Part shown: positions 4,149 through 58,926 of the stretch, piece by piece
How the letters are laid out: every line of letters begins with the position of its first letter
Position numbering within the stretch: position 1 is the stretch's first letter
Origin: Lucinisca nassula
Lineage: Eukaryota; Mollusca; Bivalvia; Lucinida; Lucinidae
NCBI GenBank assembly: GCA_963580285.1
Contig: OY757023.1
Location: 127,070,027 to 127,134,026, forward strand
DNA length: 64,000 bases
Direction: 5' to 3'
Position numbers and translations under genes: made by a program
The notes under the pieces: model-generated
Told to the model about the DNA's origin: nothing
Seen by the model: only the letters and a program-made list of their open reading frames with translations
Databases searched by the model: none

Positions 4149-4797
4149 AGCATAACCGGCGGTTACCCCTTACGAGTTTACCAGCCGTGACTGTAGTCTG
4201 CTCAAAGATGGTAATTACCTACAATTGGTCATTTATTCAACTCCAAATTCTTCACAGATCTTCCATACCCATGCAATACCAACCATACATTCATATAAAG
4301 ATGTGCCTTCTAATTACATTGATACCTCACAAACTTGACAATTTTCGCATGTTCTTGAAGCACAGCGGCTCTGTCTTTGCGCAAGTTGTAGTTTACACAA
4401 CATGTTGGAAACAAGTTTATCAATAAAATTGTGGAATTTTAGGTAAGAATTCCATAAGATTTAATTCCGTACCTCTTCATTACCGAAGCTGAATTATTTT
4501 GAATTACAGTTGTATACTGAATAAAATTTTAAAAAATATTCTAATTTCGGACTTCTGGTCACACACGAGTGTTCGCATCCGTTGTTTACACATCAGATAC
4601 ATCCAATGGAGGGTACAGTGGGTCCGGATACTGTGATTATATATGCATTTCAACCTTTCAGAGAGATACGATTGTGGTGGCCTAGACTTATTTTCAAGGT
4701 CAAATCATGCATGTTTACATGATATTTATTATTGGGAAGTAAGTTTTTCTAGTTGGTTTTGCACTAACTCATATTTGTTTGCTCCTTGTTTAAACAG
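4149..4797. other. Intron sequence upstream of exon 2
   Basis: AT-rich, no element recognised. The polypyrimidine tract 'TTTGCTCCTTGTTTAAACAG' ending at 4797 is the exon 2 acceptor. Confidence 0.5.
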
Positions 4798-6386: not shown

Positions 6387-6688
6387 TATTTCGGTCAAGT
6401 TTGAATATGGGTCATGTCAGTTCAAAAAGTAGGTCAGTAGGTTAAATCATAGAAAAACCTTGTGAACACACTCTAGAGGCCACAGTTTTGGTCTAATCAT
6501 CATCAAACTTATCCGGAATGATCATCTTGACAATAGCCCCCATCCATCAGGGCTTGAAGAAATACATAGGCTGCATGATGCCTCCACGCAAAGCTGAAAC
6601 CGACCCACACATGAGTAATGGTAAACTGCTTAGTGGATCTAAGCCTGCTCAGGCAGTGTGGTGCGAGTCAGCCCGTCCATGCTTATAA

Positions 6689-8149
6689 AGTAGAAGTAAA
6701 ACAAAGATCAAGAATTGATACAATTAACTTACTCCATCCATAAAAGACACCAAAGGGAAAGAAATACAAACATTAAGCGACCAGACCATAATGGAAACCT
6801 AAACAAAGGAAGGCCATATGGACAGTTACTTTCCCACAAAATGGCCATCCAAAATTAAAAGACACAAGCGACACACACAGCAAGCAACAAACAACAACAC
6901 AAATAAATCGCCACAGAAGAGCCGCCTTGGAACGGTCAGTGGAAGATTTCCACTGGGGGGCTTAAATCGATTTTACGTGGCCACAATCCTCGCCCTTACT
7001 TCCGTCGCGATTTAGACAAAAAATTTGCCCAGCCCGCACGAAGGCCCCCCCAACCCACCAGCGCAACATCTCCGTGAACACAGAAATCAAAGAACCACAG
7101 AGGTGAGACAACGGCGAGGACTCGACAGCAAGAAACCACTGAAATGCTCGAGCAAAAGAAAACCAACAGTTAGACTCCGATGAGCCCGACCAGAGACAGA
7201 GCATCAGGCACCAACCAACATTATCTCTTTAATTTTCAATAAGCCTCCACGTTGGAGCCGTCATAGAATCCGAGGCCCGACCCACCGGCGCGCAACCAAA
7301 GAGGGAAGCAAAGCCGCCAACCGTGACCGGGCCAACCACCACGCACGCAGTCTGTCGCACAATATCCATGCTGTACCCAATCTTCCCACACCGAAGAACG
7401 ACCCCACGAAACCGGGCGCCGAAGCCACTGCGGCTATACATCCCTCCGAATTTATACACCAAGCCACCACAAAACTCGGGTTCCGATAGACCTTGTTGCA
7501 GAAGAGACCCAAGCCCAACACCGAACCCTGAAATTAAATCAGAATGGCGTCTACAAAATCCCGAAAAGGCCCTGCGTAGTTTATGGTACCGATAACCCCG
7601 ATCAAGGAGTTTAGCCGCAAACAATTTATTACGAGTGTTGAAGTCAGCCACACGACCACACACCCCAGCAAACCGAATTAATTGCGAAATATAAACGCCA
7701 CAGGATGGCGCACGAGGAACATCACCAAAAAAGGAAAATTTACAATCCCAAAATCAAAGTCATCGCGTTTATCATAAATTTTGCACGAAACAAACCCATC
7801 TACAATAGATAGATGTAAATCCAAAAACGGGGCCTCGGTATCAGAAGAATTTGCTTTATTTAACTGAAGTTCTAGGGGGTAAATCTGACTGATCAAACCA
7901 TCAAAACAGGTATTATCAATATCCAACAAACCATCCAAACATCTAGAAGTAGAGCTAAAAAAAGTAGAAGTAAAACAAAGATCAGGAATTGATACAATTA
8001 ACTTACTCCACCCATAAAAGACACCAAAAAAACACTGAAAGCCTCAATAACTTCATATTGGTTATCAATGGAAAGCGACAAAATGAAGTGTCTTTCATAA
8101 CAACACAAGAACAGATCAGCCACAAGAGGTGTGCAATTAGTACCCATCG
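6689..8149 (-). pseudogene. Penelope-like element copy, massively A-to-G changed (hyperedited)
   Basis: Minus-strand 3' region plus C-terminal reverse transcriptase, the same arrangement as 57028-58392. Compared with that copy, the + strand shows about 100 T-to-C changes (A-to-G on the sense strand) and only a handful of other substitutions; no C-to-T was seen. In 7251-7690 I count about 72 T-to-C and one T-to-A. The protein changes follow: K to R/G, N to S/G/D, I to V/M, Y to C, T to A, Q to R. The frames 7229-7663 and 7678-7938 remain open only because A-to-G cannot create stops easily. Changes are clustered; 7750-7880 is nearly untouched. A 4-base deletion lies near 7727. A 68-bp PLE tip is nested at 7961-8028. 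Confidence 0.85.
7961..8028 (-). mobile_element. 68-bp PLE 3' tip nested inside the edited copy
   Basis: AAAGTAGAAGTAAAACAAAG through to ACACCAAA interrupts the reverse transcriptase sequence, which resumes at about 8037 (AAAGCCTCAATAACTTC). It is itself unedited, so it arrived after, or separately from, the edited copy. Confidence 0.7.
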
Positions 8150-8275
8150 GAAACCCTATTGGTTTCATTGGGCCGCAGGGCTTGAGCTGTCATTTCATCT
8201 CAGTGTGGGGTAAAAGTCCCGCAAAATTGGAAGCAACGTCTCCAAAATGACCTTTACAGTGTTGACGGGGACGTC

Positions 8276-8966: not shown

Positions 8967-9828
8967 AAAGTAGAAGTAAAACATTAGAAGTAAAGGAAAA
9001 TTTACAATCTCAAAATCAAAGTCATCGCGTTTATCATAAATTTTGCACGAAACAAATCCATCTACAATAGATAGATGTAAATCCAAAAACGGGGCCTCGG
9101 TATCAGAAGAATTTGCTTTATTTAACTGAAGTTCTAGGGGGTAAATCTGACTGATCAAACCATCAAAATAGGTATTATCAATATTTAATAAATCATCTAA
9201 ATATCTAGAAGTAGAGTTAAAAGCTTCAATAATTTCAGATTGGTTATCAATGGAAAGCGGCAAAATGAAGTCTCTTTCATAACAATACAAGAACAGATCA
9301 GCCACAAGAGGTGCGCAATTAGTACCCATCGGAATACCCACAATTTGTCTAAATAACTTAGTACCGAATCTAATATAAATATTGTCAAGTAGAAAGGTGA
9401 GGGCATCACACACTTTCTGACATGACCAAAGTGTATAATTCTTATGCTCTTTAGAAGTGAAAAATGCATTTCTAACATTACATGCAAGATAGAGAGAATC
9501 GTCTCTGTGAAAAGCCCATTCAATTAAATCATTAAGCTTTACTTTTATAAGATTATGAGGAAGTGTAGTGTAAAGAGTGGAAAAATCGTAGGTAGACAGA
9601 CTAGAAGCACGAAACTGTCTAGATTTCAATTTATTTAAAACCTCATTCGAATTTTTTATAGACCAAAACAGATTTCTTCCTGATCTTTCAAAGACTTTAT
9701 CACAATATTTAATTACATGCGTTTTAATAGCAGTAAGACAGGAAGTTAATAGTTTAGAAAGTTCAGTGGTAGTGCAAGAACTAGAATTTGCAATAAACCG
9801 TGCTTTGTAAGGTTTTTTATGAAGAGCC
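8967..9828 (-). mobile_element. PLE copy with reverse transcriptase N-terminal half and internal deletion
   Basis: Frame 8928-9842 encodes, in order, KPYKARFIANSSSCTTTEL, the RT motif DFSTLYTTLPHNLI, GIPMGTNCAPLVADLF and SRYLDDLLNID (YLDD), then FLDLHLSI. It reaches further into the N-terminal side than other copies here. The 3' tip (AGTAGAAGTAAAAC, 8968-8982) is joined directly to 'TTAGAAGTAAAGGAAAATTT' inside the RT, so the C-terminal RT and most of the 3' region are deleted. It sits inside the 120-bp satellite. Confidence 0.8.
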
Positions 9829-33169: not shown

Positions 33170-34823
33170 GGACTTTACACTACACTTCCTCATAATCTTA
33201 TAAAAGAAAAGCTTAATGATTTAATTGAATGGACTTTTCACAGAGAAGATTCTCTCTATCTTGCATGTAATGTCAGAAATGCATTTTTCACTTCTAAAGA
33301 GCATAAGAATTATACACTTTGGTCATGTCAGAAAGTGTGTGATGCCCTCACCTTTCTACTTGACAATATTTATATTAGATTCGGTACTAAGTTATTTAGA
33401 CAAATTGTGGGTATTCCGATGGGTACTAATTGCGCACCTCTTGTGGCTGATCTGTTCTTGTATTGTTATGAAAGAGACTTCATTTTGTCGCTTTCCATTG
33501 ATAACCAATCTGAAATTATTGAAGCTTTTAGCTCTACTTCTAGATATTTAGATGATTTATTAAATATTGATAATACCTATTTTGATGGTTTGATCAGTCA
33601 GATTTACCCCCTTGAACTTCAGTTAAATAAAGCAAATTCTTCTGATACCGAGGCCCCGTTTTTGGATTTACATCTGTCTATTGTAGATGGATTTGTTTCG
33701 TGCAAAATTTATGATAAACGCGATGACTTTGATTTTGAGATTGTAAATTTTCCTTTTTTGGATGGTGATGTTCCTCGTGCGCCATCCTATGGCGTTTATA
33801 TTTCGCAATTAATTCGATTTGCTAGAGTGTGTAGTCATGTAACTGACTTCAACACTCGTAATAAATTATTAACGGCTAAACTCCTTAATCAGGGTTATCG
33901 GTACCATAAACTACGCAAAGCCTTTTCAAAATTTTATAGACGCCATTCTGATTTAATTTCAAAATTCAATATTGGACTTAAATCTCTTCTGCAACAAGGT
34001 CTATCGGAACCCGAATTTTATGGTGACTTAGCATATAAATTCAGAAAAATATATAACCGCAATGACTTCAGCACCCAATTTCGTAAAATCATTCTTCGAT
34101 ATAAAAAGATTGGGTACAACATGGATATTATACGACAGACTGCATGCATGGTAGTTAACCCAATCACGGTTGGCAACTTTGCTTCCCTCTTTAATTGCAC
34201 GCCGGTGGGTCAGGCCTCAGATTCTATGACGGCTCCAACGTAAAGGCTTATTGAGAATTAGAGAGATCTAATTCAAGGTAATGTTGGTTGGTGCCTGATG
34301 CTCTGTCTCTGGTCGGGCTCATCGGAGTCTAACTGTTGGTTTTCTTTTGCTCCAGCATTTCAGTGGTTTCTTGCTGTCGAGTCCTCACCGTTGTCTCACC
34401 TCTGTGGTTCTTTGATTTTTGTGTTCACGGAGATGTTGCACTGATGAGTTAGGAGGCCTTCATGCGGACTGAACAAATTATTTGTCTAAATCGCGACGGA
34501 AGTAAGGGCGAGGATTGTGGCCACGTAAAATCGATTTAAGCCCCCCAGTGGAAATCTTCCACTGACCGTTCCAAGGCGGCTCTTCTGTGGCGATTTATTT
34601 ATGTTGTTGTTTGTTACTTACTGTGTGTATCACTTGTGTCTTTTGGTTTTGGATGACCATATGGCCATTTTGTGGGAAAGTAACTGTCCTTATGGCCTTC
34701 CTTTGTTTGGGTTTCCATTATGGTCTGGTCGCTTAATGTTTGTATTTCTTTCCCTTTGGTGTCTTTTATGGGTGGAGTAAGTTAATTGTATCAATTCCTG
34801 ATCTTTGTTTTACTTCTACTTTT
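33170..34823 (+). mobile_element. PLE copy, 5'-truncated, best-preserved 3' half
   Basis: Reverse transcriptase from the LYTTLPHNLI motif to its stop (34243), then a 580-bp 3' region: 'GGTTGGTGCCTGATGCTCTG', 'CATCGGAGTCTAACTGTTGG', 'CGCGACGGAAGTAAGGGCGA', 'GGTTTCCATTATGGTCTGG', ending TTTTACTTCTACTTT. Used here as the reference for all other fragments. No GIY-YIG endonuclease frame is present in any copy, consistent with 5' truncation or with an endonuclease-less type. Confidence 0.85.
33173..34243 (+). CDS. Penelope-like reverse transcriptase, C-terminal part (truncated, uninterrupted)
   Basis: About 356 codons without a stop in frame with an ATG at 33335. Visible motifs: LYTTLPHNLI (palm motif A side), GIPMGTNCAPLVADLFLYCY (motif B type), SRYLDDLLNIDN with the YLDD metal-binding pair, FLDLHLSI, then FPFLDGDVPRAPSYGVYISQ and a basic thumb-like region ending NCTPVGQASDSMTAPT. 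The arrangement 'DFS-LYT..IP', 'MGT-CAP' and 'YLDD' is typical of Penelope-like or related RTs (family knowledge). It lacks the upstream fingers, including the DFS aspartate kept in 8967-9828, so it is not functional. Near-identical protein is encoded at 57595-58380. Confidence 0.8.
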   Translation, partial: LYTTLPHNLIKEKLNDLIEWTFHREDSLYLACNVRNAFFTSKEHKNYTLWSCQKVCDALTFLLDNIYIRFGTKLFRQIVGIPMGTNCAPLVADLFLYCYERDFILSLSIDNQSEIIEAFSSTSRYLDDLLNIDNTYFDGLISQIYPLELQLNKANSSDTEAPFLDLHLSIVDGFVSCKIYDKRDDFDFEIVNFPFLDGDVPRAPSYGVYISQLIRFARVCSHVTDFNTRNKLLTAKLLNQGYRYHKLRKAFSKFYRRHSDLISKFNIGLKSLLQQGLSEPEFYGDLAYKFRKIYNRNDFSTQFRKIILRYKKIGYNMDIIRQTACMVVNPITVGNFASLFNCTPVGQASDSMTAPT

Positions 34824-36614: not shown

Positions 36615-36903
36615 GATGATAACCCTTTTATAGAACATATTTAACTTCACTACAGCTGGTGTGTGGGAATGTGTGGCGGCGGTAAAACGTCTCCCTGCCC
36701 GACATCATAGTGTAGATTATATTTTCTTGTCCTTTGGGATCATTGATTCCATTGTGGAATTTTGAAAATATCTGAGGGTCACTGATGAGGCCTAATTGGC
36801 CGAAACTAGCTAGTCTGGCCCAGAAAACATGTACACTCCATATTTTTCACTTCTGTGGTGTATTCCTTGCTTCCAAAGGATAACCCTTTTATAGAACATA
36901 TTT
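36615..36903 (+). mobile_element. Retrozyme-like element inserted in the PLE
   Basis: One unit of about 265 bp with 'GATAACCCTTTTATAGAACA' at both ends (terminal repetition), 'GGCGGCGGTAAAACGTCTCC' and an intact hammerhead. The PLE sequence on both sides rejoins when it is removed. This is direct sequence evidence that the unit is mobile. Confidence 0.85.
36776..36821 (+). ncRNA. Hammerhead ribozyme, type I, intact core
   Basis: GGGTCA - CTGATGA - GGCCTAATTGGCC - GAA - ACTA GC TAGT - C - TGGCCC. Stem I 6 bp with one G-U, stem II 4 bp, stem III 4 bp with a 2-base loop, cleavage after GUC. Confidence 0.9.
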
Positions 36904-38576
36904 AAATAAATTGAAATCCAGACATTTTCGTGCTTCAAGTCTGTCTACTTACGATTTTTCCACTCTTTACACTACACTTCCTCATAATCTTATAAAAGAA
37001 AAGCTTAATGATTTAATTGAATGGGCTTTTCACAGAGAAGATTCTCTCTATCTTGCATGTAATGTCAGAAATGCATTTTTCACTTCTAAAGAGCATAAGA
37101 ATTATACACTTTGGTCATGTCAGAAAGTGTGTGATGCCCTCACCTTTTTTACTTGACAATATTTATATTAGATTCGGTACTAAGTTATTTAGACAAATTG
37201 TGGGTATTCCGATGGGTACGAATTGCGCACCTCTTGTGGCTGATCTGTTCTTGTATTGTTATGAAAGAGACTTCATGTTGTCGCTTTCCATTGATAACCA
37301 ATCTGAAATTGTTGAAGCTTTTAGCTCCACTTCTTGATATTTAGATGATTTATTAAATATTGATAATACCTATTTCGATGGTTTGATCAGTCAGATTTAC
37401 CCCCCAGAACTTCAGTTAAATAAAGCAAATTCTTCTGATACCGAGGCCCCGTTTTTGGATTTACATCTATCTATTGTAGATGGATTTGTTTCGTGCAAAA
37501 TTTATGATAAACGCGATGACTTTAATTTTGAGATGGTAAATTTTCCTTTTTTGGATGGTGATGTTCCTCGCGTGCCATCCTATGGCGTTTATATTTCGCA
37601 ATTAATTCGATTTGCTAGAGTGTGTAGTCATGTAATTGACTTCAACACTCGTGATAAATTATTAACGGCTAAACTCCTTAATCAGGGTTATCGGTACCAT
37701 AAACTACGCAAAGCCTTTTCAAAATTTTATAGACGCCATTCTGATTTAATTTCAAAATTCAATATTGGACTTAAATCTCTTCGGCAACAAGGTCTATCGG
37801 AACCCGAATTTTATGGTGACTTAGTATATAAATTCAGAAAAATATATATTAAACCGCAACAACTTCACCCAGTTTTCGTAAAATCATTCTTCAATATAAA
37901 AAGATTGGGTACAACATGGATGTTATACTACAGACTGCATGCATGGTAGTTAACCCAATCAAGGTTAGCAACTTTGCTTCCCTCTTTAATTGCACGCGGG
38001 TGGGTCAGATCTCAGATTCTATGACGGCTCCAACGTAACGGCTTATTGAGAATTAGAGAGATCTAATTCAAGGTAATGTTGGTTGGTGCCTGATGCTCTG
38101 TCTCTGGTCGGGCCCATCGGAGTCTAACTGTTGGTTTTCTTTTGCTCCAGCATTTCAGTGGTTTCTTGCTGTCGAGTCCTCACCGTTGTCTCACCTCTGT
38201 GGTTCTTTGATTTTTGTGTTCACGGAGATGTTGCACTGAGTTAGGAGGCCTTCATGTGGACTGAACAAATTATTTGTCTAAATCGCGACGGAAGTAAGGG
38301 AGAGGATTGTGGCCACGTAAAATCAATTTAAGCCCCCCAGTGGAAATCATTCCACTGACCGTTCCAAGGCAGTTCTTCTGTGGCGGTTTATTTATGGTGT
38401 TGTTTGTTACTTACTGTGTGTATCACTTGTGTCTTTTTGTTTTGGATGGCCATATGGCCATTTTGTGGGAAAGTAACTGTCCTTATGGCCTTCCTTTGTT
38501 TAGGTTTCCATTATGGTCTGGTCGCTTAATGTTTGAGTTTATTCCCTTTGGTGTCTTTGATGGGTGGAGTAAGTTA

Positions 38577-41108: not shown

Positions 41109-41427
41109 GGGGCGAGGATTGTGGCCGCGTGGGATCGATTTAAGCCCCCCAGTGGAAATCTTCCACTGACCGTTCCAAGGCGGCTCTTCTGTGGCGATTT
41201 ATTTTATGTTGTTGTTTGTTACTTACTGTGTGTATCACTTGTGTCTTTTAGTTTCGGATGACCATATGGCCATTTTGTGGGAAAGTAACTGTCCTTATGG
41301 CCTTCCTTTGTTTAGGTTTCCATTATGGTCTGGTCGCTTAATGTTTGTATTTCTTTCCCTTTGGTGTCTTTTATGGGTGGAGTAAGTTAATTGTATCAAT
41401 TCCTGATCTTTGTTTTACTTCTACTTT
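41109..41427 (+). mobile_element. PLE 3' region fragment with a small A-to-G cluster
   Basis: From 'GGGCGAGGATTGTGG' to TTACTTCTACTTT. At 41121-41140 it reads GCCGCGTGGGATCG where other copies read GCCACGTAAAATCG: four A-to-G in 7 bases on the sense strand. Confidence 0.85.
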
Positions 41428-51434: not shown

Positions 51435-52654
51435 AAAGTAGAAGTAAAACAAAGATCTGGAATTGATACAATTAACTTACTCCACCCATAAAAGACACCA
51501 AAGGGAAAGAAATACAAACATTAAGCAACCAGACCATAATGGAAACCTAAACAAAGGAAGGCCATAAGGACAGTTACTTTCCCACAAAATGGCCATATGG
51601 CCATCCAAAATTAAAATACACAAGTGATACACACAGTAAGTAACAAACAACAACATAAATAAATCGCCACAGAAGAGCCGCCTTGGAACGGTCAGTGGAA
51701 TGATTTCCACTGGGGGGCTTAAATCGATTTTACGTGGCCACAATCCTCGCCCTTACTTCCATCGCAATTTAGACAAATAATTTGTTCAGTCCGCATGAAG
51801 GCCTCCTAACTCATCAGTGCAACATCTCCGTGAACACAAAAATCAAAGTACCACAGAGGTGAGACAACGGTGAGGACTCAACAGCAAGAAACCACTGAAA
51901 TGCTGGAGCAAAAGAAAACCAACAGTTAGACTCCGATGAGCCCGACCAGAGACAGAGCATCAGGCACCAACCAACATTATCTCTCTAATTCTCAATAAGC
52001 CTTTACGTTGGAGCCGTCATAGCATCCGAGGCCTGACCCACCGGCGTGCAATTAAAGAGGGAAGCAAAGTTGCCAACCGTGATTGGGTTAACTACCATGC
52101 ATGCAGTCACTGTCTGTCGTATAATATCCATGTTGTACCCAATCTTTTTATATCGAAGAATGATTTTACGAAATTGGGTGCTGAAATCATTGCGGTTATA
52201 TATTTTTCTGAATTTATATACTAAGTCACCATAAAATTCGGGTTCCGATAGACCTTGTTGCAGAAGAGATTTAAGTCCAATATTGAATTTTGAAATTAAA
52301 TCAGAATGGCGTCTATAAAATTTTGAAAAGGCTTTGCGTAGTTTATGGTACCGATAACACTGATTAAGGAGTTTAGCCGTTAATGATTTATTACGAGTGT
52401 TGAAGTCCGTTACATGACTACACACTCTAGCAAATCAAATGAATTGCGAAATATAAACGCCATAGGATGGCGCAGGAGGAACATCATCATCCAAAAAAGG
52501 AAAATTTACAATCTCAAAATCAAAGTCATCGCGTTTATCATAAATTTTGCACGAAACAAATCCATCTACAATAGATAGATGTAAATCCAAAAACGGGCCT
52601 CGGTATCAGAAAAATTGGCTTTATTTAACTGAAGTTCTAGGGGGTAAATCTGAC
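51435..52654 (-). mobile_element. PLE copy, 3' region plus C-terminal RT
   Basis: Frame 52003-52425 encodes MCSHVTDFNTRN to ASDAMTAPT; upstream the frame is broken near 52435 ('CAAATCAAATGAATTG') and near 52485. Truncated at 'GGTAAATCTGAC'. Contains a 3-base insertion (TGT/CAC) near 52110 giving RQTVTAC. Confidence 0.85.
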
Positions 52655-52782
52655 TCTTCTCCGCCATTTCTGATCTGATCTTTATCAAACTTGCAGATAA
52701 CCAGGAGGGACATACAGTCTACATAGAGTTCGAATTTCGGCTGCATGAGACAAACAAGTTTGGCGTTACCTGCCCTTGTTTA

Positions 52783-57027: not shown

Positions 57028-58392
57028 AAAGTAGAAGTAAAACAAAGATCAGGAATTGATACAATTAACTTACTCCATCCATAAAAGACACCAAAGGGAA
57101 AGAAATACAAACATTAAGCGACCAGACCATAATGGAAACCTAAACAAAGGAAGGCCATATGGACAGTTACTTTCCCACAAAATGGCCATATGGCCATCCA
57201 AAATTAAAAGACACAAGTGATACACACAGTAAGTAACAAACAACAACATAAATAAATCGCCACAGAAGAGCCGCCTTGGAACGGTCAGTGGAAGATTTCC
57301 ACTGAGGGGCTTAAATCGATTTTACGTGGCCACAATCCTCGCCCTTACTTCCGTCGCGATTTAGACAAATAATTTGTTCAGTCCGCATGAAGGCCTCCTA
57401 ACTCATCAGTGCAACATCTCCGTGAACACAGAAATCAAAGAACCACAGAGGTGAGACAACGGTGAGGACTCGACAGCAAGAAACCACTGAAATGCTGGAG
57501 CAAAAGAAAACCAACAGTTAGACTCCGATGAGCCCGACCAGAGACAGAGCATCAGGCACCAACCAACATTATCTCTTTAATTTTCAATAAGCCTTTACGT
57601 TGGAGCCGTCATAGAATCTGAGGCCTGACCCACCGGCGTGCAATTAAAGAGGGAAGCAAAGTTGCCAACCGTGATTGGGTTAACTACCATGCATGCAGTC
57701 TGTCGTATAATATCCATGTTGTACCCAATCTTTTTATATCGAAGAATGATTTTACGAAATTGGGTGCTGAAGTCATTGTGGTTATATATTTTTCTGAATT
57801 TATATACTAAGTCACCATAAAATTCGGGTTCCGATAGACCTTGTTGCAGAAGAGATTTAAGTCCAATATTGAATTTTGAAATTAAATCAGAATGGCGTCT
57901 ATAAAATTTTGAAAAGGCTTTGCGTAGTTTATGGTACCGATAACCCTGATTAAGGAGTTTAGCCGTTAATAATTTATTACGAGTGTTGAAGTCAGTTACA
58001 TGACTACACACTCTAGCAAATCGAATTAATTGCGAAATATAAACGCCATAGGATGGCGCACGAGGAACATCACCATCCAAAAAAGGAAAATTTACAATCT
58101 CAAAATCAAAGTCATCGCGTTTATCATAAATTTTGCACGAAACAAATCCATCTACAATAGATAGATGTAAATCCAAAAACGGGGCCTCGGTATCAGAAGA
58201 ATTTGCTTTATTTAACTGAAGTTCTAGGGGGTAAATCTGACTGATCAAACCATCAAAATAGGTATTATCAATATTTAATAAATCATCTAAATATCTAGAA
58301 GTAGAGCTAAAAGCTTCAATAATTTCAGATTGGTTATCAATGGAAAGCGACAAAATGAAGTCTCTTTCATAACAATACAAGAACAGATCAGC
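57028..58392 (-). mobile_element. PLE copy, 3' region plus C-terminal RT, well preserved
   Basis: Full 3' region (57028-57590) and RT back to 'GAACAGATCAGC' (58392). Nearly identical to 33170-34823; best direct comparison for the A-to-G changed copy 6689-8149, with which it shares the GACTCCGATGAGCCC and CTTTAATTTTCAATAAG variants. Confidence 0.9.
57595..58380 (-). CDS. Penelope-like reverse transcriptase, C-terminal 261 codons (truncated)
   Basis: Open from the YERDFILSLSIDNQSE segment through SRYLDDLLNIDN, FLDLHLSI, FPFLDGDVPRAPSYGVYISQ and the basic C-terminal region to QASDSMTAPT and stop. The catalytic YLDD is present but motif A and the fingers are absent, so it cannot act alone. Sequence is almost the same as at 33173-34243, indicating recent activity of the source element. 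Confidence 0.85.
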   Translation of the reverse strand: MYCYERDFILSLSIDNQSEIIEAFSSTSRYLDDLLNIDNTYFDGLISQIYPLELQLNKANSSDTEAPFLDLHLSIVDGFVSCKIYDKRDDFDFEIVNFPFLDGDVPRAPSYGVYISQLIRFARVCSHVTDFNTRNKLLTAKLLNQGYRYHKLRKAFSKFYRRHSDLISKFNIGLKSLLQQGLSEPEFYGDLVYKFRKIYNHNDFSTQFRKIILRYKKIGYNMDIIRQTACMVVNPITVGNFASLFNCTPVGQASDSMTAPT

Positions 58393-58926
58393 CCAACTTT
58401 CCTTTATGGCGTGGGGTGTTCCACTATTGGCAATAGACTATCAAAAATTGCAACTCAGCAAACACTGATTTTGATTTTTAGTTTGTGTCTGGTTTCACAG
58501 TTCCTTAATAAAAAGTGGTTGTGTTACGTATATTTTCTCTTACAATTAATTTTCGAACCAATATTAGCACAACCCCAGCGGAGCTGAACCACATGTAAAA
58601 TTTAATGTTTGGAAATGGCGGATTTGTTTAGCTAGTAGTGGAATGAAAAGGACCTGTTGCAATCTATAATGGCAGCTGGCCTACTGAAGTGGTGATTTCC
58701 CAAAGTTATCGAATGGACGCAAAACCATGTTTTATCAGTGCCTAAATGCATCAACTTTAACCCTTGCTATTATATTTTCTCATTCTCATATCCTTTCTGT
58801 GAAAATTTTATGGTTGAAAACATATACTGTCTTCGACATTTAACATTGAGTCTATGGGAATAATTTTACCATGTCCTACCCTCTTAACCAAATTCTTTCT
58901 TGTAAATAATTAATTGGCATATATAT
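58393..58926. other. Intron sequence, nothing recognised
   Basis: No repeat identified; short frames only. Confidence 0.35.

What the first reader, a model, noticed from the sequence alone, without database searches (positions are those of the whole stretch)
6689..8149. A retroelement copy with about 100 A-to-G changes: apparent genomic fossil of ADAR-edited RNA
Seen: against the near-identical copies at 57028-58392 and 33170-34823, this copy differs by about 100 T-to-C on the + strand (A-to-G on the element's sense strand) and only about five other substitutions; in 7251-7690 I counted about 72 T-to-C, one T-to-A and no C-to-T. Changes are clustered, with untouched stretches such as 7750-7880. 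Ts followed by C (sense A with a 5' G) mostly escape (about 4 changed versus at least 13 unchanged), as expected for ADAR, which disfavours a 5' G. Every other PLE copy shares the unchanged state. Inference: the transcript was double-stranded (inverted copies abound in these introns), was hyperedited A-to-I, then reverse transcribed and integrated.
Basis: partly seen in the sequence, partly recalled or inferred. Interest (0 to 1): 0.88.

Follow-up and report, generated by a model that had tools for sequence, protein, structure and literature searches.

The report
RNA editing written into genome DNA
A jumping-gene copy carries about 100 A-to-G changes on one strand and almost nothing else, and so do many sister copies, so its RNA was very probably edited by the host before being copied back into DNA; this would be an A-to-G counterpart of the known APOBEC mutational defence.

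Summary
Confirmed and extended. Against its nearest relative in the window, the copy at 6687-7960 (sense = minus strand) has 99 A>G and five other substitutions. It is not unique: of 40 genome places examined (a sample biased towards it), 14 carry A>G-hypermutated copies, pooled 752 A>G against 21 C>T, 21 T>C, 14 G>A. The changes are sense-strand only, copy-bounded, clustered, largely copy-specific and unselected (396 nonsynonymous, 390.5 expected). The 5' neighbour follows ADAR's order: T and A favoured, C and G disfavoured. Other repeats there show no bias (674 mostly short pairs). Twelve proteins, apparently from other genomes, carry 22-39 A>G-consistent changes among 25-50, also outside the query region (73 of 92). 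Best explanation: sense transcripts of an active Penelope-like element pair with antisense or inverted copies, are hyperedited A-to-I by ADAR, then reverse transcribed and inserted. Not shown: the ADAR gene (search did not complete), RNA data, an unbiased frequency, the species, the duplex partner.

The parts
6687..7960 (-). A>G-hypermutated, 5'-truncated copy of the retroelement (3' end at 6687, sense = minus strand)
   Evidence: 99 A>G and 5 other substitutions against 57028-58312; exact 3' end ...TTTTACTTCTACTTT and a 5' junction on another copy's 3' end
7229..7753 (-). edited remnant of the reverse-transcriptase ORF (174 aa open), usual stop TAA changed to TGG
7961..8035 (-). ~68-base fragment of an element 3' end lying between two pieces of element
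   Evidence: matches the 3'-terminal repeat at 6687-6754 and many other copies; no A>G in it (3 transversions)
8035..8157 (-). further upstream element piece, not clearly edited
   Evidence: 7 differences to 33409-33531, 3 of them A>G
8992..9824 (-). neighbouring unedited copy in the same orientation (local control)
   Evidence: 0 A>G, 6 other differences; in the 231 bases shared with the focus copy the only substitutions are 10 A>G
57028..58393 (-). closest unedited copy in the window, used as reference
   Evidence: 0 A>G against the column majority
33173..34822 (+). long copy, not hypermutated (7 A>G of 13 differences, lightly skewed)
36901..38576 (+). older copy, no skew
   Evidence: A>G 8, G>A 7, C>T 9, T>C 7, transversions 19
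51435..52655 (-). copy without skew
   Evidence: A>G 4 of 24 differences

Best explanation
The window holds a genomic copy of an RNA that was hyperedited A-to-I. Sense transcripts of a young, high-copy Penelope-like element form double-stranded RNA with antisense transcripts or inverted, often 5'-truncated copies. A host adenosine deaminase (ADAR) converts tracts of adenosine to inosine. The element's reverse transcriptase reads inosine as G and the cDNA is inserted, fixing the editing as A>G in DNA. It has happened many times independently and in heavily edited copies breaks the reverse-transcriptase gene. Shown here: the one-strand A>G spectrum, tract clustering, copy-bounded changes, largely independent events, neighbour preference, absence of selection, and the same signature in proteins apparently from other genomes. 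Inferred: ADAR as the enzyme, the duplex partner, and the order editing -> reverse transcription -> insertion.
For: Spectrum 752 A>G against 21 C>T, 21 T>C, 14 G>A, 14 A>T, 2 A>C in 14 edited copies. No counterpart on the other strand: among 67 aligned pieces none has 13 or more T>C making up half its changes; the largest T>C counts, 21 of 173 and 14 of 119, are in old pieces. This fits modification of the template RNA, not DNA damage, which would fall on either strand. Neighbouring copies of edited ones are clean: window 8992-9824 0 A>G, L001 251-1305 0, L037 4422-5097 0, L031 2583-1781 1. 5' neighbour observed/expected in block permutation: T 1.17 (z 4.0), A 1.13 (z 3.5), C 0.83 (z -3.6), G 0.76 (z -4.9); no 3' preference. 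PMC6651903 reports for mollusc ADAR1 T, A or C upstream, GA weak, no strong downstream preference (passages). Tracts can be saturated, for example 9 of 9 and 5 of 5 A sites in the focus copy; the A following an edited A is edited in 47-72% of cases, following an unedited A in 2-15% (7 copies). Edits are shared between copies only moderately above local expectation (996 against 786). No selection: 396 nonsynonymous, 390.5 expected. Even 28 copies with at most 20 differences hold clustered A>G (35 of 71 within 40 nt), against 0 of 25 T>C, 0 of 26 G>A and 6 of 33 C>T. 10 of 39 loci hold an inverted element piece; 11 of 17 such pieces lie in about the last 800 bases, near the most edited part. PMC5625713 reports massive RNA hyperediting of Penelope in lizard and explains CR1 editing by pairing of 3' fragments (passage). 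Proteins: 12 of 239 tested have the signature; outside the query region 73 of 92 changes are A>G-consistent.
Against: The 5'-G deficit is mild: 115 of 752 edits (15%) against 1,359 of 6,827 sites (20%), whereas PMC2873906 gives 5.8% for its filtered Xenopus RNA set; saturated tracts may explain this. PMC5625713 finds A favoured downstream in invertebrates; here A is 1.02. 5' C is below expectation here, though called a good target in PMC6651903. No ADAR gene could be looked for, no RNA data are at hand, the species is unknown, the duplex partner is inferred. Editing does not follow the RNA's own predicted fold, so a partner strand is required and none was identified for any copy. The 3' concentration of edits is partly ascertained, since places were ranked by likeness to a copy of the 3' part. 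Among copies not chosen by similarity none but the focus copy was edited (8 pieces of at least 800 bases).
Confidence: 0.88

Rival explanations
1. The element's own reverse transcriptase is error-prone at template A (as in diversity-generating retroelements, or through a starved dTTP pool) and puts dC opposite A.
For: Sense-strand limitation and copy-bounded changes are equally expected; tract clustering could reflect bouts of low fidelity.
Against: A>T 14 and A>C 2 beside 752 A>G; adenine mutagenesis in diversity-generating retroelements gives all three products (recalled). A dCTP-rich, dTTP-poor pool should favour A with a 5' G, since the next base is then easily added (recalled reasoning); 5' G is the least edited context. 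53 of 67 pieces are not hypermutated.
Confidence: 0.06
2. Adenine deamination in DNA: cDNA, the RNA-DNA hybrid, or the inserted copy.
For: ADARs can deaminate dA in DNA-RNA hybrids (recalled).
Against: Deaminating the first-strand cDNA would give T>C on the sense strand; no T>C-hypermutated piece among 67. Damage after insertion would not stop at copy borders or choose one strand; four neighbouring copies are clean and other repeats show no skew (674 pairs, mostly short, so of limited power).
Confidence: 0.04
3. A separate GC-rich subfamily, or all other copies descend from a G>A-mutated master.
For: Edited copies share more sites than local rates predict (996 against 786).
Against: Each edited copy has its own set of sites; YLDD, invariant or nearly so in 32 aligned sequences, reads CLDG in the focus copy; nonsynonymous changes are at the unselected level.
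Confidence: 0.005
4. Sequencing or assembly artefact.
For: PMC2873906 shows that strand-specific mismatch clusters can be sequencing errors (G-to-A there).
Against: 14 separate places; no skew in other repeats of the same loci; the same signature in proteins apparently from other genomes.
Confidence: 0.01

Closest known systems
APOBEC DNA editing of retrotransposons and retroviruses (G-to-A clusters)
   Same: a host deaminase hypermutates a retroelement intermediate and the result is fixed in the genome as strand-specific clusters (described in PMC2873906, passages read)
   Different: base change is A>G on the sense strand, not G>A; the target is inferred to be double-stranded RNA before reverse transcription, not minus-strand DNA
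ADAR hyperediting of repeat and viral RNAs, including Penelope RNA in lizard and herpesvirus RNAs in molluscs
   Same: clustered A-to-G, 5' G avoided, repeats able to form dsRNA (PMC5625713, passages and section 6; PMC6651903, passages)
   Different: those are RNA reads against unchanged DNA; here the change is in genomic DNA of new element copies
A-to-G hypermutated proviruses attributed to ADAR (recalled, no call)
   Same: edited RNA reverse transcribed and integrated
   Different: viruses in culture or infection; here an endogenous element and many genomic copies
Diversity-generating retroelements (adenine mutagenesis; recalled)
   Same: adenine-specific change tied to reverse transcription
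   Different: all three products there, essentially only G here; a template/variable repeat pair was not looked for

Membership tests
genomic copy of ADAR-hyperedited RNA | A>G only, on the transcript strand | tested here: met
   752 A>G against 21, 21 and 14 of the other transitions in 14 copies; no T>C-hypermutated piece among 67
genomic copy of ADAR-hyperedited RNA | 5' neighbour preference U,A over C over G | tested here: met
   1.17, 1.13, 0.83, 0.76 of expectation, z 4.0, 3.5, -3.6, -4.9; the G deficit is milder than in published RNA sets
genomic copy of ADAR-hyperedited RNA | clustered tracts confined to the retrocopied unit | tested here: met
genomic copy of ADAR-hyperedited RNA | double-stranded substrate | tested here: inconclusive
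   10 of 39 loci hold an inverted piece; editing does not follow the single-strand fold; no partner identified for any one copy
genomic copy of ADAR-hyperedited RNA | an ADAR gene in the genome | not tested
   search for PF02137 did not complete (31 requests)
genomic copy of ADAR-hyperedited RNA | edited transcripts in the organism | not testable with these tools
   no RNA data; species unnamed
APOBEC DNA editing | G>A (sense) clusters | tested here: not met
   G>A 14 of 861 changes in the edited copies
diversity-generating retroelement | A to any base | tested here: not met
   A>T 14, A>C 2 beside A>G 752
Penelope-like element | reverse transcriptase with Y-x-D-D | tested here: inconclusive
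   YLDD invariant or nearly so in 32 aligned sequences, but Pfam RVT_1 only E 0.1; the RVT_1 match in relative P0061 lies outside the part that aligns to this family; AlphaFold model poor
Penelope-like element | GIY-YIG endonuclease | tested here: inconclusive
   an ORF at L033 926-1375, upstream of the RT ORF, looks like GIY-YIG by eye; Pfam and PDB sequence searches find nothing
Penelope-like element | head-to-tail tandem, overlapping ends, 5' truncation | tested here: met
   L035 tandem with an overlap of about 135 bases; near-constant 3' ends and variable 5' ends
Penelope-like element | hammerhead ribozyme in the terminal repeat (recalled) | tested here: not met
   no Rfam family at gathering score in the window; the longer copies were not scanned

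The most novel reading that the evidence does not exclude
ADAR is a standing germline mutator of Penelope-like elements in several animal genomes: RNA editing is routinely written into DNA, inactivates a real share of new insertions, and so acts as an A-to-G counterpart of APOBEC restriction whose history can be read from assemblies alone.
Probability: 0.6. Interest if true: 0.92.

Novelty: new variant of a known kind. Interest (0 to 1): 0.86.

Why it matters
Deaminase hypermutation of retroelements is known for cytidine deaminases, and ADAR editing of repeat RNA is known. Whether ADAR editing shapes element evolution or suppresses retrotransposition by mutation was called undetermined, for Alu, in a 2016 review (PMC4982230, passages read). 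Genomic copies with A>G tracts speak to that question: they point to editing before insertion, keep a record of RNA stretches that were double-stranded, and can be counted in any assembly. My paper searches (listings, with passages of four of the listed papers) showed no report of such copies for an endogenous retroelement; they cover open-licence papers only, so one may exist elsewhere.

Tried and rejected
GC-rich subfamily, G>A master, APOBEC, DNA-level damage, RT infidelity and artefact were considered; see rivals. Editing in the RNA's own fold was tested and not supported (Spearman -0.03, p 0.56). Target-site duplications: none of 9 or more bases found by a simple search. Rfam: no match in the window. 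Bacterial assemblies as a source of host-contaminant DNA: no locus. Structure prediction of the RT ORF was poor (mean pLDDT 42.7) and was not used. Four 10-kb stretches at places picked by hand and four beside the window: 2 pieces of at least 800 bases, neither hypermutated. On checking, I dropped RVT_1 in P0061 as support for the RT label.

Ascertainment: the 39 other genome places are all the non-self places that one search scored (40 scored of 15,202 candidates), ranked by words shared with the edited 3' part, so 14 of 40 is not a frequency and the 3' concentration is partly ascertained. The second protein search used an edited query and enriches for edited relatives; therefore the region outside the query was tested apart. 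P0049 (18 of 18 changes A>G-consistent) and P0098 (7 of 9) came from the unedited query. That these proteins come from other genomes is inferred: among the 120 listed of 7,998 hits the best identity to the query is 90%, and the edited query's best listed identity is 72%. The protein p-values use an assumed A>G-consistent share of 0.15 (observed 242 of 1,895).

Full report
OBSERVATION. The copy at 6687-7960 (sense = minus strand) differs from the copy at 57028-58312 by 99 A>G, 2 A>T, 1 C>G, 1 T>C and 1 C>T. From three further long copies it differs by 98, 101 and 91 A>G with 15, 40 and 26 other substitutions; those copies differ from each other and from 57028-58312 by 14-55 mixed changes. Where at least two others agree and this copy differs, 94 of 98 columns are A>G. 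Among 422 similar pairs in the window the five most skewed all involve this copy. Its neighbour at 8992-9222, same orientation, differs from it in the shared 231 bases by 10 A>G and no other substitution.

POLARITY. A is the older state: the other window copies carry A, the YLDD motif (invariant or nearly so in 32 aligned sequences) reads CLDG in this copy, and the ORF stop TAA reads TGG.

THE GENOME. The window lies in a 2.93-Gb assembly; the focus copy has 39 other scored places, main alignments 88-91% identical, from 15,202 candidates of which 40 were scored. All 39 were fetched. Counted against the majority letter, 67 aligned pieces of at least 400 bases (window included; coordinates on loci turned to the sense strand) contain 14 with at least 13 A>G making up half or more of their changes: L040 99, focus 98, L003 96, L034 94, L020 83, L038 58, L016 55, L031 53, L001 27, L037 25, L023 21, L008 17, L039 13, L036 13. 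Two old pieces with 23 and 17 A>G fail the half rule (173 and 119 changes in all). Pooled: 752 A>G, 21 C>T, 21 T>C, 14 A>T, 14 G>A, 12 T>A, 11 G>T, 16 of four further types. No piece meets the same rule for T>C. The sample is ranked by likeness to the edited copy, so 14 of 40 places is not a frequency; among copies not chosen that way, none but the focus copy was edited (8 pieces of at least 800 bases).

SIGNATURE. With edit states permuted inside blocks of ten A sites per copy, the 5' neighbour gives T 1.17, A 1.13, C 0.83 and G 0.76 of expectation (z 4.0, 3.5, -3.6, -4.9); the 3' neighbour gives 0.98-1.02. Two bases upstream, T is also in excess (1.14, z 4.2) and A in deficit (0.83, z -4.1), which I cannot explain. 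Mollusc ADAR1 is described with T, A or C upstream, GA weak and no strong downstream preference (PMC6651903, passages). A cross-animal survey agrees on upstream G depletion but reports A favoured downstream in invertebrates (PMC5625713, section 6), which is not seen here. The G deficit (15% of edits, 20% of sites) is milder than in RNA sets (PMC2873906: 5.8% in filtered Xenopus RNA). Tracts can be saturated: 9 of 9, 5 of 5, 6 of 6 A sites; others are half edited or less.

INDEPENDENCE AND SELECTION. The copies have different flanks, variable 5' ends and a near-constant 3' end. Shared edited sites exceed the local-rate expectation moderately, 996 against 786 over all pairs: mainly separate events with common preferred sites. 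In the ORF 396 of 533 edits are nonsynonymous, 390.5 expected. Little-changed copies also show it: 71 A>G in 28 copies (at least 1,200 bases, at most 20 differences), 35 of them within 40 nt of another, against 0 of 25 T>C, 0 of 26 G>A and 6 of 33 C>T; their A>G show no clear 5' context (20, 17, 16, 18 for A, C, G, T).

WHERE IT ACTS. Adjoining copies have 0-1 A>G (window 8992-9824, L001 251-1305, L037 4422-5097, L031 2583-1781). In other repeats of the same 276 kb, after masking, 674 pairs show no one-class excess (best log10 p -1.3); most listed are short, so power is limited. Edits concentrate between about 1260 and 2300 of the 2,384-base reference; L020 is also edited at 61-840. This is partly ascertained, because places were ranked on the 3' part. 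The unit is longer, at least 4.29 kb; L038 has 58 A>G in the reference part, all from position 1501 on, and none among the four commonest change types of its 1,532 further upstream bases. 10 of 39 loci hold an inverted element piece; 11 of 17 such pieces lie in about the last 800 bases. The RNA's own fold does not predict editing. So the likeliest duplex is with antisense or inverted, 5'-truncated copies (inference); the survey reports Penelope RNA in lizard as massively hyperedited and explains CR1 editing by pairing of 3' fragments. Penelope elements are described with a tendency to tandem and inverted structures and possible bidirectional transcription (PMC3846280, passages).

OTHER GENOMES. 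In the 120 listed relatives of an unedited copy, P0049 departs from its neighbours' consensus only by A>G-consistent changes (18 of 18) and P0098 by 7 of 9; with the wider neighbour set P0049 counts 7 of 8. A second search with the focus copy's own edited piece gave, among 239 tested proteins, 12 with 22-39 A>G-consistent changes among 25-50; the most extreme log10 p for G>A, C>T or T>C is -3.1, against -15 to -28.6 for these. Outside the query region, 73 of 92 of their changes are A>G-consistent, 2 G>A, 2 C>T, 1 T>C, and 4 of 12 read W past the usual stop.

WHAT IT IS. The element has a 499-aa ORF with YLDD, only weakly matched by Pfam RVT_1 (E 0.1); a GIY-YIG-like ORF upstream was recognised by eye only. 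The order endonuclease then RT recalls permuted Penelope-like elements (recalled; paper not held). The label Penelope-like is likely but not proven.

MECHANISM. Sense RNA -> duplex with antisense copy -> A-to-I editing in tracts -> inosine read as G by the element's RT -> insertion. Shown: one strand, one change, tracts, copy limits, neighbour order, recurrence. Inferred: enzyme, partner, order. First-strand cDNA deamination predicts the opposite strand; RT infidelity would be expected to give other products too; neither is seen.

LITERATURE. [quoted passage not shown] PMC2873906 (passages) found RNA-type clusters in cDNA traces but no such over-representation in DNA traces of human and Xenopus. 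My searches showed no report of genomic ADAR footprints in an endogenous retroelement; they cover open-licence papers only.

Noticed in passing
window 7961-8035: A ~68-base piece of an element 3' end lies between two element pieces that are otherwise continuous; junctions of a 3' end with a downstream truncated copy recur (L001, L002, L015, L017), suggesting template jumping or insertion into like sequence.
   Followed up: partly
L033 926-1375 and 2219-3718: A GIY-YIG-like ORF (by eye) lies upstream of the reverse-transcriptase ORF, a permuted order; Pfam and PDB give no match.
   Followed up: partly
L039 about 4266-4287: The last bases of the element read TTTTGCTTCTGCTTT instead of TTTTACTTCTACTTT: A>G reaches the very 3' end, yet the copy was inserted.
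   Followed up: no
L032 1882-4285 and 6201-4283 (locus turned to sense): Two element copies abut tail to tail as an inverted pair, a locus whose read-through transcript could form a long hairpin.
   Followed up: no
edited copies, position -2: T excess (1.14) and A deficit (0.83) two bases upstream of edited A.
   Followed up: no
P0018, P0095: Close relatives of this retroelement protein are recorded under bacterial MAGs (Candidatus Thiodiazotropha), probably host contamination.
   Followed up: partly
window 33173-34822, 41110-41427: Lightly A>G-skewed copies (7 of 13 and 6 of 9 differences), suggesting weak editing is more common than the extreme copies.
   Followed up: partly
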